Below, one piece after another: positions 2,778-34,938 of a stretch of 64,000 bases of DNA. Numbering within the stretch: position 1 is the first letter of the stretch; every line of letters starts with the position of its first letter. A program made the position numbers and the translations under genes. Origin of the DNA: Methylopila sp. M107 (GTDB lineage: Bacteria > Pseudomonadota > Alphaproteobacteria > Rhizobiales > Methylopilaceae); contig NZ_ARWB01000001.1 of the NCBI RefSeq assembly GCF_000384475.1, positions 1,964,176 through 2,028,175 on the forward strand, read 5' to 3'. Below the pieces are notes generated by a model. It was not told the DNA's origin and searched no databases. It saw nothing but the letters and a program-made list of their open reading frames with translations.

Positions 2778-2885
2778 ACCCCTTCTCCCGCCTGCGGGAG
2801 AAGGTAAGGATGAGGGGCGTCGACCCGCTCGGTCCTTTCCTGAGAGCCCCTCACCCTTACCCTCTCCCGCTTGCGGGAGAGGGGG
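2778..2885. repeat. Palindromic intergenic repeat, family C (variant)
   Basis: Two hairpins in tail-to-tail order: CTTCTCCCGCCTGCGGGAGA at the left, and CCCTCTCCCGC/GCGGGAGAGGG at the right, joined by a spacer with TAAGGATGAGGGG and its inverse CCCCTCACCCTTAC. It belongs to the same family as 22137-22274, 25538-25680 and 39846-39989. The right hairpin overlaps the 3' end of miaA. It lies between convergent genes and could serve as a bidirectional transcription barrier. Confidence 0.8.
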
Positions 2886-3882
2886 CGGCAAGGGATCCGC
2901 AAATTCCCCTTCGCTCGATCTCCCGCATCGCCGCCTCCAGCGCCTCTTCCGGCGCGACGTGAATCCAGTCCGTCATCCGGTTGCGGAACCAGGTCGATTG
3001 GCGCTTGGCGTAGCGGCGGGTGTCGAGCCGCGTTCGCTCGATCGCCGCCTCCCGCGAAAGCTCGCCGCGCAGCCACGCCGACAGCGGCCCGACGCCGAGC
3101 GCCTTCATCGCCGGCAGCGCCGGATCAAGGTCGCGCTCGGCGAGCGCTCTCGCCTCCTCGGCCGCCCCTTCCACGATCATGCCGTCGAGCCGGCGGACAA
3201 TCCTGCGCTCGAGTTCAGCCCGGTCCGGCGACAGGACGATCCGAAGCGTCGCGGACGGATCGATCAGCCCTTCGCCGGCTTCCGCCTGCCAGTCGGCGAG
3301 CGAGCGACCGGTCGCGTCGATCACCTCGAGCGCGCGCGCCAGTCGCTGCGGGTCGGTGGGCCGCAGCCGCGAGGCCATTATGGGATCGCGGCGGGCGAGC
3401 TCGGCGTGGAGTTCGGAGGGCGAGCCGAACACCCGCCATTTCGCGCGTATATCTTCGGGGATTGCGGGGACACTCGCTAAACCGTTGATAAGCGCCTCGA
3501 AGTAAAGCCCTGTACCACCGACGAAGATTGGGATCTTTTGCGACTGGCACGCGCTCGCGCCATTCGTTGCGCCCTGTTGAGAAGCCGGCTCAACGCCTGT
3601 GCGCAACCTGTTGATAACCATGTCGGCGTCGGCCAGCCAGCGCCCGACGCCATAGGCCTCCGCCGCGTCGACGCCGCCGTAAAGAAGGTGCGGCGCGGCG
3701 GCTTCGTCCTCATCGCCCGGCCGCGCCGAGAGGACGCGCAGGTCGCGATAGACCTGGCTCGCGTCCGTGTTCACCACCGCGCCGCCAAGCGCGCGCGCGA
3801 GCGCGACGGCGAGCGTGGACTTTCCCGACGCCGTCGGCCCGGCGATCAGAACCGCGCGGATGGGTTTCTCGTCTTGCGACAT
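2857..3882 (-). CDS. miaA: tRNA dimethylallyltransferase
   Basis: 341 residues from ATG 3882; an in-frame ATG at 3903 would add seven. It transfers the dimethylallyl group to N6 of A37 in tRNAs that read codons beginning with U. The P-loop GPTASGKST lies at about residues 14-22. DASQVYRDL (DSxQvY-type) follows, with the tRNA-binding region KALGVGPL and RYAKRQSTWFRNR near the C-terminus. The last residues (AAPSPASGRG) are encoded by the palindromic repeat at 2778-2885, which also supplies the stop codon, so the tail looks recent. It is divergent from serB, 85 bases away. Confidence 0.95.
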   Translation of the reverse strand: MSQDEKPIRAVLIAGPTASGKSTLAVALARALGGAVVNTDASQVYRDLRVLSARPGDEDEAAAPHLLYGGVDAAEAYGVGRWLADADMVINRLRTGVEPASQQGATNGASACQSQKIPIFVGGTGLYFEALINGLASVPAIPEDIRAKWRVFGSPSELHAELARRDPIMASRLRPTDPQRLARALEVIDATGRSLADWQAEAGEGLIDPSATLRIVLSPDRAELERRIVRRLDGMIVEGAAEEARALAERDLDPALPAMKALGVGPLSAWLRGELSREAAIERTRLDTRRYAKRQSTWFRNRMTDWIHVAPEEALEAAMREIERRGICGSLAAPSPASGRG

Positions 3883-17202: not shown

Positions 17203-17364
17203 GATCCTCCTCCGCTTTAGCGGGGGAGGGGGACCATGCGAAGCATGGTGGAGGGGGCCGCGCCTCGGGATGAGGCTCGGACCGACCCTCGAACGCTCTA
17301 CGCCTCGCCCCCTCCACCGCCTTCGGCGGTCCCCCTCCCCCATGCTGAAGCATGGAGGAGGATC
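17203..17364. repeat. Palindromic repeat, family D (intact copy)
   Basis: Bounded by GATCCTCCTCC and GGAGGAGGATC. The left arm has GCGGGGGAGGGGGACCATGC, then AAGCATGGTGGAGGGGGC; the right arm has the inverse, ending CGGTCCCCCTCCCCCATGC. This copy is uninterrupted and serves as the empty-site reference for the IS110 insertion at 33686: the CT core corresponds to 17335-17336. Confidence 0.8.
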
Positions 17365-25493: not shown

Positions 25494-25537
25494 TGGCGGC
25501 CGCTAGCCTCTCCACCGTTATGCCCGGCGGAAACCTG

Positions 25538-33518: not shown

Positions 33519-33687
33519 GATCCTCTCCTGCGACTTGTCGCGGGGGAGGGGGACCATGCGAAGCATGGTGGAGGGGGCGGGCTCGCGCCGCCATTTCGTC
33601 GACGCGCGCGCCTCTGCCGTGAGCGTGCAGGGCGGGGGGATTTTGACCGTCTTGCCCTACGTCCGCCCCCTCCAACGCGGTCCCCCT
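33519..33687. repeat. Family D repeat, left part, interrupted by the IS element
   Basis: It shares GCGGGGGAGGGGGACCATGC, then GAAGCATGGTGGAGGGGGC, with the intact copy at 17203-17364, and ends CGCGGTCCCCCT, where the insertion begins. Confidence 0.75.
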
Positions 33688-33882
33688 TGTATCTGTTCGT
33701 TGGCTTTGAGGCGTGTTGGTCTTGGGGCTGCGAGCGAGCCGGCGGCCGCCGGCTCGCTCGCAGGGCGGACGGCGCCCGATCCCCCTCAGGCTGCAACCGA
33801 CAGGGAGCCATGGGACCGCCGCCCTCGTCACATGCGACCGGACAGTCGCTCGGCTTCAACCGCATGCGCAAGGCAGGTTACC
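33688..33882 (+). ncRNA. Candidate bridge RNA of the IS110 element
   Basis: The leader begins with a GC-rich hairpin (the 36-bp palindrome 33728-33763). It then carries two loops sharing a near-identical 11-base scaffold: GGCTGCAACCG (33789-33799) and GGCTTCAACCG (33852-33862). Loop 1 is preceded by GATCCCCCT (33778-33786), which matches the target GGTCCCCCT at 8 of 9, and is followed by GGGAG (33803-33807), the complement of the target CTCCC. Loop 2 is preceded by GACAGTCGCT (33841-33850), identical over 10 of 10 to the element's right end, and is followed by CAAG (33869-33872), the complement of CTTG at the left end. This is the target-loop then donor-loop order known for IS621. Boundaries are approximate. 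Confidence 0.72.
33728..33763. repeat. Perfect 36-bp palindrome in the IS110 leader
   Basis: Each 18-base arm begins CTGCGAGCGAGCC, and the two meet without a spacer. As RNA it would form a very stable hairpin, corresponding in position to the 5' stem-loop of a bridge RNA. Confidence 0.85.
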
Positions 33883-34798
33883 GTGACAGACCTCATCTGT
33901 GGAGTGGACGTCTCCTCCAGGACGCTGGACGCCCGCATCGGCGCGGACGGCCCCGAAGGCCGCTTCGCCCGCGACCCGGCCGGGATCGCGAAGCTCGCCG
34001 CCTTCTGCCGGCGCAACGGCGCGACGCTCGTCGCCATGGAAGCGACCGGCGGATATGAGCGGCTGCCCTTCGGCCTGCTGTGGAGCGAGGGCGTTTCCTG
34101 CGCGATCGTCAATCCGCGGCAGGTCCGCGGCTTCGCCGAGGCGATGGGGACGCTCGAGAAGACCGACCGCATCGACGCCGGCCTGATCGCCGCCTATGCG
34201 GGCGCCCGCCAGCCCGGCGCAGGAGAAGCTCAGGAGCCTCGCCCGCCGGCTCGGCCAGCTGGTCGCGCTGAAGGTCGCGCAAGCGAACCAGCGCCGCCTG
34301 GTCGACGACCCGGACGTGCTGGCCTCGATCGACGCCGTGATCGCGCTCGCGCTCGCCGAGGCCCGCGCGATCGAGGCCAAGATCGCCGCGCTGATCGACG
34401 CCGACCCGCTCTGGCGGCGCCTCGACCGCGCGTTCCGCGAGGTCAAGGGCGTGGCCGGCCGCACCATCGCCCGGCTGATGAGCGCGATGCCCGAGATCGG
34501 ATCGATCTCCGGCAAGGCCGCGGCCAAGCTCGCGGGCCTCGCCCCAATCGCGCGCGACAGCGGAAACGTCAGCGGCCGGCGACGCGTGCGCGGCGGACGC
34601 GCCGAGATCCGCACCGCCCTCGTCGTGGTCGCCGAGATCGTGCGCCGCCACGAGCCCGACTTCGCCGCCTTCCACGCAAAGCTCGTCGCCGCCGGAAAGC
34701 CGAAGATGGCGGTCCGGGTCGCCCTCGCCAGAAAACTCCTCGTCCGCCTCAACGCAAAAGCCCGAGACGCACGCGCAACACACGCCCAAACCGCTTGA
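33883..34798 (+). pseudogene. IS110-family DEDD recombinase, frameshifted
   Basis: The N-terminal RuvC-like half reads from GTG 33883: ICGVDVSSRTLDARI (D), VAMEATGGYERL (E) and KTDRIDAGLIA (D, D) form the DEDD site. The C-terminal Tnp_20 half continues in the next frame with the coiled coil, GKAAAKLAGLAPIARDSGNV (likely catalytic serine in DSG) and GGRAEIRTALVVVAEI. The frames join at the CCC run 34213-34215: removing one C gives ARQPAQEKLRSLARRL and a 304-residue protein of normal length. The break could be a mutation or, less likely, a sequencing error. The stop at 34796-34798 overlaps the putative junction -35 element. Confidence 0.88.
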
Positions 34799-34813
34799 CC
34801 AGACAGACAGTCG

Positions 34814-34843
34814 CTCCCCCATGCTGTCGCATGGAGGAGGATC
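34814..34843. repeat. Family D repeat, right end, displaced by the IS element
   Basis: CTCCCCCATGC, then TGTCGCATGGAGGAGGATC, continues the repeat that was broken at 33687. Confidence 0.75.
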
Positions 34844-34938
34844 AGCTCCGCATCTTCGTCTCACGCGATGTTGACGCCTCCACCGCTCCCGTGGTCGTGT
34901 CGAACCGCATCGCCGCTTCGTCGAACCGCGTCAGTCCA

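What the first reader, a model, noticed from the sequence alone, without database searches (positions are those of the whole stretch)
33688..33882. IS110 leader carries a recognisable bridge RNA with both guide loops readable
Seen: two loops with almost the same scaffold (GGCTGCAACCG and GGCTTCAACCG) follow each other. The first is flanked by GATCCCCCT (8 of 9 identical to the left target half plus core) and GGGAG (complement of core plus right target half). The second is flanked by GACAGTCGCT (10 of 10 identical to the element's right end plus core) and CAAG (complement of core plus left end). Known: IS621-type bridge RNAs bring donor and target together through exactly such left and right guides, in this order. 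Inference: this is an uncatalogued bridge RNA whose donor and target rules can be read directly. The 10-base donor match and the duplicated scaffold make chance unlikely.
Basis: partly seen in the sequence, partly recalled or inferred. Interest (0 to 1): 0.92.

Follow-up and report, generated by a model that had tools for sequence, protein, structure and literature searches.

The report
IS110 element with readable bridge RNA
This stretch is the leader of a mobile DNA element (IS110 family) that encodes a two-armed guide RNA, one arm matching the DNA site where the element sits and the other matching the element's own end; comparison with relatives supports this strongly, but it is a new example of a kind of system already described in 2024.

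Summary
Window 33686-34815 is a 1.1-kb IS110-group insertion sequence. It sits scarlessly (core CT) in an interspersed repeat whose uninterrupted 18-bp target occurs 31 times exactly and 23 times with one mismatch in the same genome.

Its leader encodes an IS621-type bridge RNA. A covariance model built without the window finds it at E = 4e-21, and it is the only credible hit in the genome.

Across 42 distinct leaders (64 loci including the window), both target guides match their own flanks better than others' (0 of 20,000 shuffles each). The guides lie in loops of a covarying fold (33 leaders). A junction promoter pattern is present in 29 of 30.

Corrections: the "duplicated scaffold" is mostly coincidence (8 of 42 leaders), and the left target guide is informative over about 7 positions. 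The transposase here is split by a frameshift, so this copy is probably immobile by itself.

New member of a known kind. One possibly new detail: the donor-loop stem can pair with the transposase GUG start codon (GTG in 41 of 42 leaders, ATG in none), which suggests a translational switch; this lacks covariation proof.

The parts
33640..33687 (+). Left flank: left half of the interspersed target repeat, ending ...GCGGTCCCC + core CT (33686-33687)
   Evidence: flank stretches match many dispersed places; 31 exact plus 23 one-mismatch uninterrupted copies of GGTCCCCCTCCCCCATGC; sequences of empty copies
33688..33882 (+). Left end / non-coding leader encoding the bridge RNA (RNA inferred from about 33702 to about 33887)
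   Evidence: conserved TTGTATC start; model R1 hit 33769-33885, E 4.4e-21
33690..33695 (+). -10-like element (TATCTG) of the promoter rebuilt when the ends join in a circle
   Evidence: TTGA.. - 17/18 nt - TATC in 29 of 30 distinct leaders with a right end found
33730..33761 (+). 5' stem-loop of the bridge RNA
   Evidence: 12 pairs, 10 with changes on both sides, 96.7% of cells paired over 33 leaders
33764..33823 (+). Target-binding loop (stem, left guide, hairpin, right guide, stem)
   Evidence: outer stem 6 pairs, 4 with double-sided changes, 95.5% paired
33779..33786 (+). Left target guide ATCCCCCT (the G before it is constant in the family); reads as the left target GTCCCCCT with one mismatch
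   Evidence: LTG own 4.10 of 6 against 2.47 for other targets, n = 41, 0 of 20,000 shuffles
33803..33807 (+). Right target guide GGGAG (complement of CTCCC); in relatives this guide extends to 7 nt
   Evidence: RTG own 4.67 of 5 against 2.91, n = 30, 0 of 20,000 shuffles; 22 of 30 match all 5 non-core positions
33808..33808 (+). Handshake position of the target loop (C), complementary to donor position 7 (G)
   Evidence: Layout from PMC11208158 section 11; C in 40 and T in 2 of 42 leaders, donor position 7 G in 30 of 30
33827..33887 (+). Donor-binding loop, including the possible closing stem GTCAC/GTGAC that runs into the GTG start codon
   Evidence: the stem over the start codon is 94.1% paired in 31 leaders but has no double-sided change and does not exceed shuffles (284 of 500)
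33841..33850 (+). Left donor guide GACAGTCGCT, identical to the element's right end plus core
   Evidence: LDG first 3 nt own 2.00 against 1.68, n = 30, 2 of 20,000 shuffles (Watson-Crick)
33864..33872 (+). Right donor guide AUGCGCAAG: AU + 2 unpaired + G + CAAG, the IS621 layout; CAAG pairs with CTTG of the left end
   Evidence: PMC11208158 section 8; [CT]AAGG in 42 of 42 leaders; alignment with IS621
33873..33873 (+). Handshake position of the donor loop (G), complementary to target position 7 (C)
   Evidence: target position 7 is C in 39 and T in 3 of 42
33883..34209 (+). Transposase, N-terminal part (DEDD/RuvC-like), GTG start
   Evidence: PF01548 E 2.6e-17
34196..34798 (+). Transposase, C-terminal part (Transposase_20), in another frame: the gene is split by a frameshift
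   Evidence: PF02371 E 1.8e-13; matches IS621 and ISCro4 transposases; an intact relative is one gene of 312 aa
34795..34800 (+). -35-like element TTGACC of the circle-junction promoter, overlapping the transposase stop codon TGA (34796-34798)
34799..34815 (+). Right end, ending GACAGTCG + core CT
34814..34844 (+). Right half of the interspersed target repeat

Best explanation
An IS110-group (IS621-type) insertion sequence whose leader encodes a bridge RNA. Excision to a circle joins right end and left end, which rebuilds a promoter across the core and drives an RNA of about 185 nt. In the recombinase complex the first loop pairs with both strands of the host repeat (left guide AUCCCCCU, right guide GGGAG) and the second loop with the element's own junction (GACAGUCGCU and CAAG). 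The DEDD-serine recombinase then exchanges strands at CT. Shown here by sequence: element ends, empty sites, guide-flank matching across the subfamily, covarying fold, junction promoter-like sequence. Inferred from IS621: transcription, RNA length, RNP assembly, chemistry. The copy in this window has a split transposase gene, so it is most likely a fixed relic unless enzyme is supplied in trans; no second copy of the element was found in this genome.
For: Ends and empty sites. Transposase domains: (IS621 and ISCro4 are the only PDB sequence matches at E up to 0.001). Guides change with targets; this holds among the non-acidobacterial leaders alone with identical guide-target pairs collapsed (0 of 20,000 for LTG, 30 distinct pairs, and RTG, 11 distinct pairs). 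Fold with guides in loops. Leave-window-out model. Junction promoter: as reported for IS621 (PMC11208160). Alignment with an IS621 copy with GGACAGT, GCAAGG and GGTT in register; IS621 donor ACAGTAT-CT-TGTAT read in the same copy. Handshake positions.
Against: No RNA or activity data. The transposase is frameshifted, so this copy cannot be assumed active. The window's right target guide matches only 5 of the 7 positions that relatives use (one search list: CTCCCTG against CTCCCCC), and its left guide has one mismatch. The exact guide reading GATCCCCCTCCC occurs once in the genome and is not at the element. Donor guides do not always follow the right end: L062, L074, L079, L085, L089 and L090 (6 of 30) have GATAG ends with ACAG guides. 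In G131, 3 of 8 left flanks do not end CACACCT. In 4 of 42 leaders the left guide does not end CT. In 12 of 42 leaders no right end was found by motif. The Acidobacteriota subset alone is weak for the right guide (852 of 20,000 shuffles, 4 pairs). The donor-loop closing stem is nearly invariant and gives no covariation support.
Confidence: 0.96

Rival explanations
1. The leader is only a conserved untranslated region (promoter, ribosome site, protein-binding repeats), and the guide matches are chance in C-rich DNA.
For: The left target is low-complexity C-rich; the window's LTG match taken alone is not very specific. The leader end overlaps the likely transposase ribosome site.
Against: Guides match own flanks across 41 (LTG) and 30 (RTG) leaders, 0 of 20,000 shuffles each, including targets of quite different sequence (Acidobacteriota, e.g. 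TCATCCT and CTGAGCG, one search list). The 5' and target-loop stems covary.
Confidence: 0.02
2. A dead relic: the bridge RNA sequence is recognisable but is no longer made or used in this strain. (This concerns the state of this copy and is compatible with the best explanation.)
For: Transposase split into two frames; one copy in the genome; guide mismatches against its own site.
Against: Guide, stem and promoter-like elements are intact in sequence. Another recombinase could in principle act in trans; the genome has other IS110 genes but none that matches the N-terminal query at E 1e-15.
Confidence: 0.6
3. The two loops arose by a recent duplication, as suggested by the near-identical hairpins GGCTGCAACCG and GGCTTCAACCG.
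For: 10 of 11 letters are equal in the window; the two IS621 loops are pseudo-symmetric in structure (PMC11208158 section 7).
Against: 8 of 42 leaders show GG..CAACC in both loops; the donor hairpin varies while the target hairpin is more conserved.
Confidence: 0.05

Closest known systems
IS621 (Escherichia coli), IS110 group, bridge RNA (PMC11208160, PMC11208158)
   Same: Bridge RNA in a long left end; order 5' stem-loop, target loop, donor loop; CT core; similar donor (window ACAGTCG-CT-TGTAT, IS621 copy ACAGTAT-CT-TGTAT); discontiguous right donor guide AU-NN-G-CAAG; junction promoter; insertion in interspersed repeats; transposase matches the IS621 structure entries.
   Different: Target sequence; right target guide up to 7 nt in the family (4 nt in IS621); donor-loop hairpin shorter; the closing stem of the donor loop can include the GUG start codon, whereas the IS621 RNA ends just before its ATG.
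ISCro4 (PDB 9t56)
   Same: Same transposase architecture, score similar to IS621.
   Different: Its bridge RNA was not compared here.
IS1111 group with seekRNA (PMC11187229)
   Same: DEDD transposase with guide RNA.
   Different: There the RNA usually lies downstream of the gene with the matching regions in reverse order (passages); here it lies upstream.

Membership tests
IS110 family, IS110 group (IS621-like) | DEDD/RuvC-like domain plus Transposase_20 domain | tested here: met
   PF01548 63.5 bits (cut-off 29), PF02371 51.1 bits (cut-off 21.3); in two frames in this copy
IS110 family, IS110 group (IS621-like) | Long non-coding left end upstream of the gene, short right end | tested here: met
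   195 nt left (33688-33882), 17 nt right including core (34799-34815)
IS110 family, IS110 group (IS621-like) | Site-specific insertion at a dinucleotide core with scarless empty sites | tested here: met
   uninterrupted repeat copies equal the joined flanks
IS621-type bridge RNA | 5' stem-loop, then two stem-loops with internal loops | tested here: met
   (33 leaders): covariation in 5' stem and target-loop stem; donor-loop closing stem conserved but nearly invariant, so uninformative
IS621-type bridge RNA | First loop covaries with target DNA (left guide to bottom strand, right guide to top strand) | tested here: met
IS621-type bridge RNA | Second loop covaries with donor DNA | tested here: met
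   2 of 20,000 shuffles (Watson-Crick); weak in size (2.00 against 1.68 of 3) because the donor hardly varies, and 6 of 30 leaders disagree at one position
IS621-type bridge RNA | Promoter rebuilt at the circle junction | tested here: met
   29 of 30; sequence pattern only
IS621-type bridge RNA | Handshake positions complementary to the other DNA | tested here: met
   Window C33808 against donor G7 and G33873 against target C7; one search counts. Position 6 is not complementary in the window in either loop
IS621-type bridge RNA | RNA is transcribed, binds the recombinase and is needed for recombination | not testable with these tools
   Needs experiment
IS1111 group | Bridge/seek RNA downstream of the gene with long right end | tested here: not met
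Any Rfam family | Match at gathering score | tested here: not met

The most novel reading that the evidence does not exclude
In this IS110 subfamily the bridge RNA is also a translational switch. The donor-loop closing stem pairs GUCAC(G) with (C)GUGAC, burying the transposase GUG start codon, and the right donor guide CAAGG overlaps the likely ribosome-binding site. RNA folded as a bridge RNA, or bound by recombinase, could then not be translated, so guide RNA and enzyme synthesis would be mutually exclusive. Support: GTG in 41 of 42 leaders and ATG in none (the other has GCG, and L109, outside the 42, has GTA); the stem is 94.1% paired over 31 leaders, and changes in the three variable middle pairs all keep the pair; slid controls pair 13-46%. 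Against: no double-sided change, and shuffles do as well (284 of 500), so no covariation proof; the outer pair fails in 10 of 31 and the innermost in the window itself; IS621 uses an ATG just outside its RNA.
Probability: 0.3. Interest if true: 0.45.

Novelty: new member of a known kind. Interest (0 to 1): 0.32.

Why it matters
It adds a compact, well-sampled subfamily of bridge-RNA elements (an intact relative has a 312-aa transposase; loci titled Alphaproteobacteria and Acidobacteriota) whose guides can be read from sequence, with naturally longer right target guides than IS621. Durrant et al. report that extending this guide from 4 to 7 bp improved efficiency with non-CT cores (passage). 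It also shows three different IS110 elements in one genome, each lying in a different repeat.

Tried and rejected
Close relatives in viral contigs: none. Genomes of the same family searched with the N-terminal part at E 1e-15: a match only in the own genome (1 of 18). RNAalifold on 33 leaders paired CGAC with GTCG across the donor guide; I rejected that helix because its four pairs hardly vary and it would occlude the donor guide, and named an IS621-like layout instead. That layout was drawn partly from the RNAalifold result, so the slid control favours it. The MFE of the window alone (z -2.47) does not settle the loops. The duplicated-scaffold argument was rejected. A solo bridge RNA elsewhere in the genome: none credible. 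A covariance search of 36 other loci (L021-L024, L026, L029 and L093-L123 without L111) gave two strong hits (L109, L029), one weak (L120, E 0.005) and three near chance, so the model does not reach most distant IS110s or the genome's other IS110s.

Counting: worked on 45 'distinct' leaders, but three leaders had been counted twice because their hits began at a later residue; one search recounts with 42, and the numbers here are except where another call is named. Several of the 64 loci are the same genomic place seen in two collections (for example L034 and L073). Rows dropped before counts: L091 (no left end); 22 loci with a leader already counted; 12 of 42 leaders without a right end by motif; L074 for the left guide (flank too short). 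Used in alignments: 33 leaders in A2, 31 in A3, 29 in A4 (window left out). L029 and L093-L123 were not used in the guide counts. Of 843 plasmid records with a match (40 listed) I fetched two and used one (L028). One search kept the best 80 of 297 relatives.

Literature: two of three papers holding 'bridge RNA', 'ribosome binding site' and IS110 were listed, both on other topics by their titles; none holds IS110, 'repetitive extragenic palindromic' and Alphaproteobacteria. Other searches. Subscription papers and preprints were not searched. PMC11208160: abstract, sections 6, 7, 12 and passages read; PMC11208158: abstract, sections 7, 8, 11 read; PMC11187229: passages including parts of the abstract.

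Full report
What was claimed.

The element. All quoted strings are in place. The element begins after a CT core at 33686-33687 (CT-TGTATCTG) and ends GACAGTCG-CT at 34814-34815. Stretches of both flanks match many dispersed places in the genome. The joined target GGTCCCCCTCCCCCATGC exists uninterrupted 31 times exactly and 23 times with one mismatch, against 0 for the reversed control; one exact copy is in the window at 17328-17345. So the element sits scarlessly at a CT core in an interspersed repeat, and its ends are fixed without using the guides.

The gene. Two reading frames carry the two IS110 domains: PF01548 in 33883-34209 and PF02371 in 34196-34798. The solved relatives found by sequence are the IS621 and ISCro4 transposases. 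An intact relative on a Rhizobium plasmid is one gene of 312 aa, so this copy is split by a frameshift. It is the only copy found in the genome.

Relatives. The N-terminal part matched 7 of 397 genomes of the order, the own one included (E up to 1e-20), one plasmid that I used (L028), and 79 loci in titled genome records (capped at the best 80 of 297), of which L045-L092 are 54-72% identical. By their titles these are mostly Alphaproteobacteria and Acidobacteriota. In all, 64 loci including the window had a left end, some of them the same place seen in two collections; they hold 42 distinct leaders. An earlier count of 45 had counted three leaders twice.

Guides follow sites. The clearest case is genome G131 with eight copies: donor ends and donor guide equal the window's, but the target guides read CCACACCT and GGGTGAG; 5 of 8 left flanks end CACACCT and 7 of 8 right flanks begin CTCACCC. 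Over distinct leaders, Watson-Crick matches of the left target guide (6 non-core positions, n = 41) average 4.10 with the own site and 2.47 with others. For the right target guide (5 positions, n = 30) the averages are 4.67 and 2.91. In both, 0 of 20,000 shuffles reach the observed value. For three donor positions (n = 30) they are 2.00 and 1.68, 2 of 20,000. With identical pairs collapsed and Acidobacteriota removed, both target guides still give 0 of 20,000; within Acidobacteriota alone it is 75 (8 pairs) and 852 (4 pairs) of 20,000. Exceptions are real: 6 of 30 leaders have a donor guide that differs from the right end at one position, and 4 of 42 left guides do not end CT. Shuffles do not remove relatedness, but the sites are host DNA and not part of the element.

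Fold. On 33 leaders an IS621-like fold that leaves all four guides in loops has 95.3% of cells paired (80.9% in shuffles), 16 pairs with double-sided changes (11.6 in shuffles) and 138 such cells (39.6); slid controls pair 28-49% of cells. The support is in the 5' hairpin and the target-loop stem; the donor-loop closing stem is nearly invariant and so uninformative. A model built from 29 relatives without the window finds 33769-33885 at E = 4.4e-21 in the window and as the only credible hit in the genome (3.1e-19, next 6.2).

Details shared with IS621. The right donor guide AUGCGCAAG has the IS621 layout: AU, two unpaired bases, G, then CAAG (PMC11208158 section 8). The handshake bases fit at position 7 in both loops: C33808 with donor G7, G33873 with target C7; position 6 does not fit. 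Target position 7 is C in 39 of 42 sites. Joining right to left end puts TTGACC 17 nt before TATCTG; such a pattern is present in 29 of 30 leaders, as IS621 rebuilds a promoter at its junction (PMC11208160). In direct alignment with an IS621 copy the donor guides and stem align in register; the donor of that copy reads ACAGTAT-CT-TGTAT.

The two near-identical hairpins are not evidence of a duplicated scaffold: 8 of 42 leaders have this in both loops. The left target guide is informative over about 7 positions rather than 9. The element as it stands probably cannot move by itself.

How it most likely works. Excised circle, junction promoter, bridge RNA, synapsis by two loops, strand exchange at CT. 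The sequence evidence covers ends, guides, fold and promoter pattern; transcription and chemistry are inferred from IS621.

What could be new. In this subfamily the closing stem of the donor loop (GTCACG with CGTGAC) can cover the GTG start codon, and CAAGG of the right donor guide overlaps the likely ribosome site. GTG is used in 41 of 42 leaders and ATG in none. The stem is 94.1% paired in 31 leaders, with one-sided changes in three middle pairs that all keep pairing; but there is no double change, and shuffles reach the same level (284 of 500). IS621's RNA ends immediately before its ATG. This fits a switch between RNA and enzyme production but does not show one.

Verdict. Observation confirmed, interpretation supported; a new member of a known kind.

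Noticed in passing
L021-L024 (genome positions near 426500, 1246500, 2048000, 4210800): A second IS110 element (1117 bp, 4 copies, open 330-codon frame) lies each time in another repeat (TCTGGATTCC | CCGGCC...CGGCCGGAATGACG); its leader carries TGGATTCC and ACAGTTG, matching its left flank and right end, so it probably has its own bridge RNA. Empty sites not tested.
   Followed up: partly
L026 (genome near 286450): A third IS110-type transposase frame (373 codons) is flanked by what look like halves of yet another palindromic repeat (GTCATGCCCGCG...CGCGGGTATCCACGAC); three IS110 types, three different repeats in one genome. Empty sites not tested.
   Followed up: partly
window 17328-17345: An empty, exact copy of the target GGTCCCCCTCCCCCATGC inside the window; two-mismatch copies at 25536 and 39843.
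   Followed up: no
genome position 17540: The only exact genomic match to the bridge RNA's own target reading GATCCCCCTCCC lies elsewhere; the guide is one mismatch away from the repeat in which the element sits.
   Followed up: no
window 34795-34800: The -35-like TTGACC of the circle promoter contains the transposase stop codon TGA; a TTGA-type stretch at this distance recurs in 29 of 30 leaders (the stop codon was read only in the window).
   Followed up: partly
L045 leader (2782-3003): In Microvirga massiliensis a segment beside the donor guide (GTCGCACGCGACCGAACA) is tandemly duplicated within the leader.
   Followed up: no
L032, L033, L067-L072 (Mesorhizobium records and unnamed relatives): The same leader with the same left flank in several records, without a right end by motif, and internal stops in L032 and L033: probably inherited, decayed insertions.
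   Followed up: no
L128 (E. coli IS621 copy): This IS621 copy appears to be inserted into the target-guide part of another IS621 bridge RNA sequence: its left flank reads CCGTATCGGGCCT, like the guide in its own leader.
   Followed up: no
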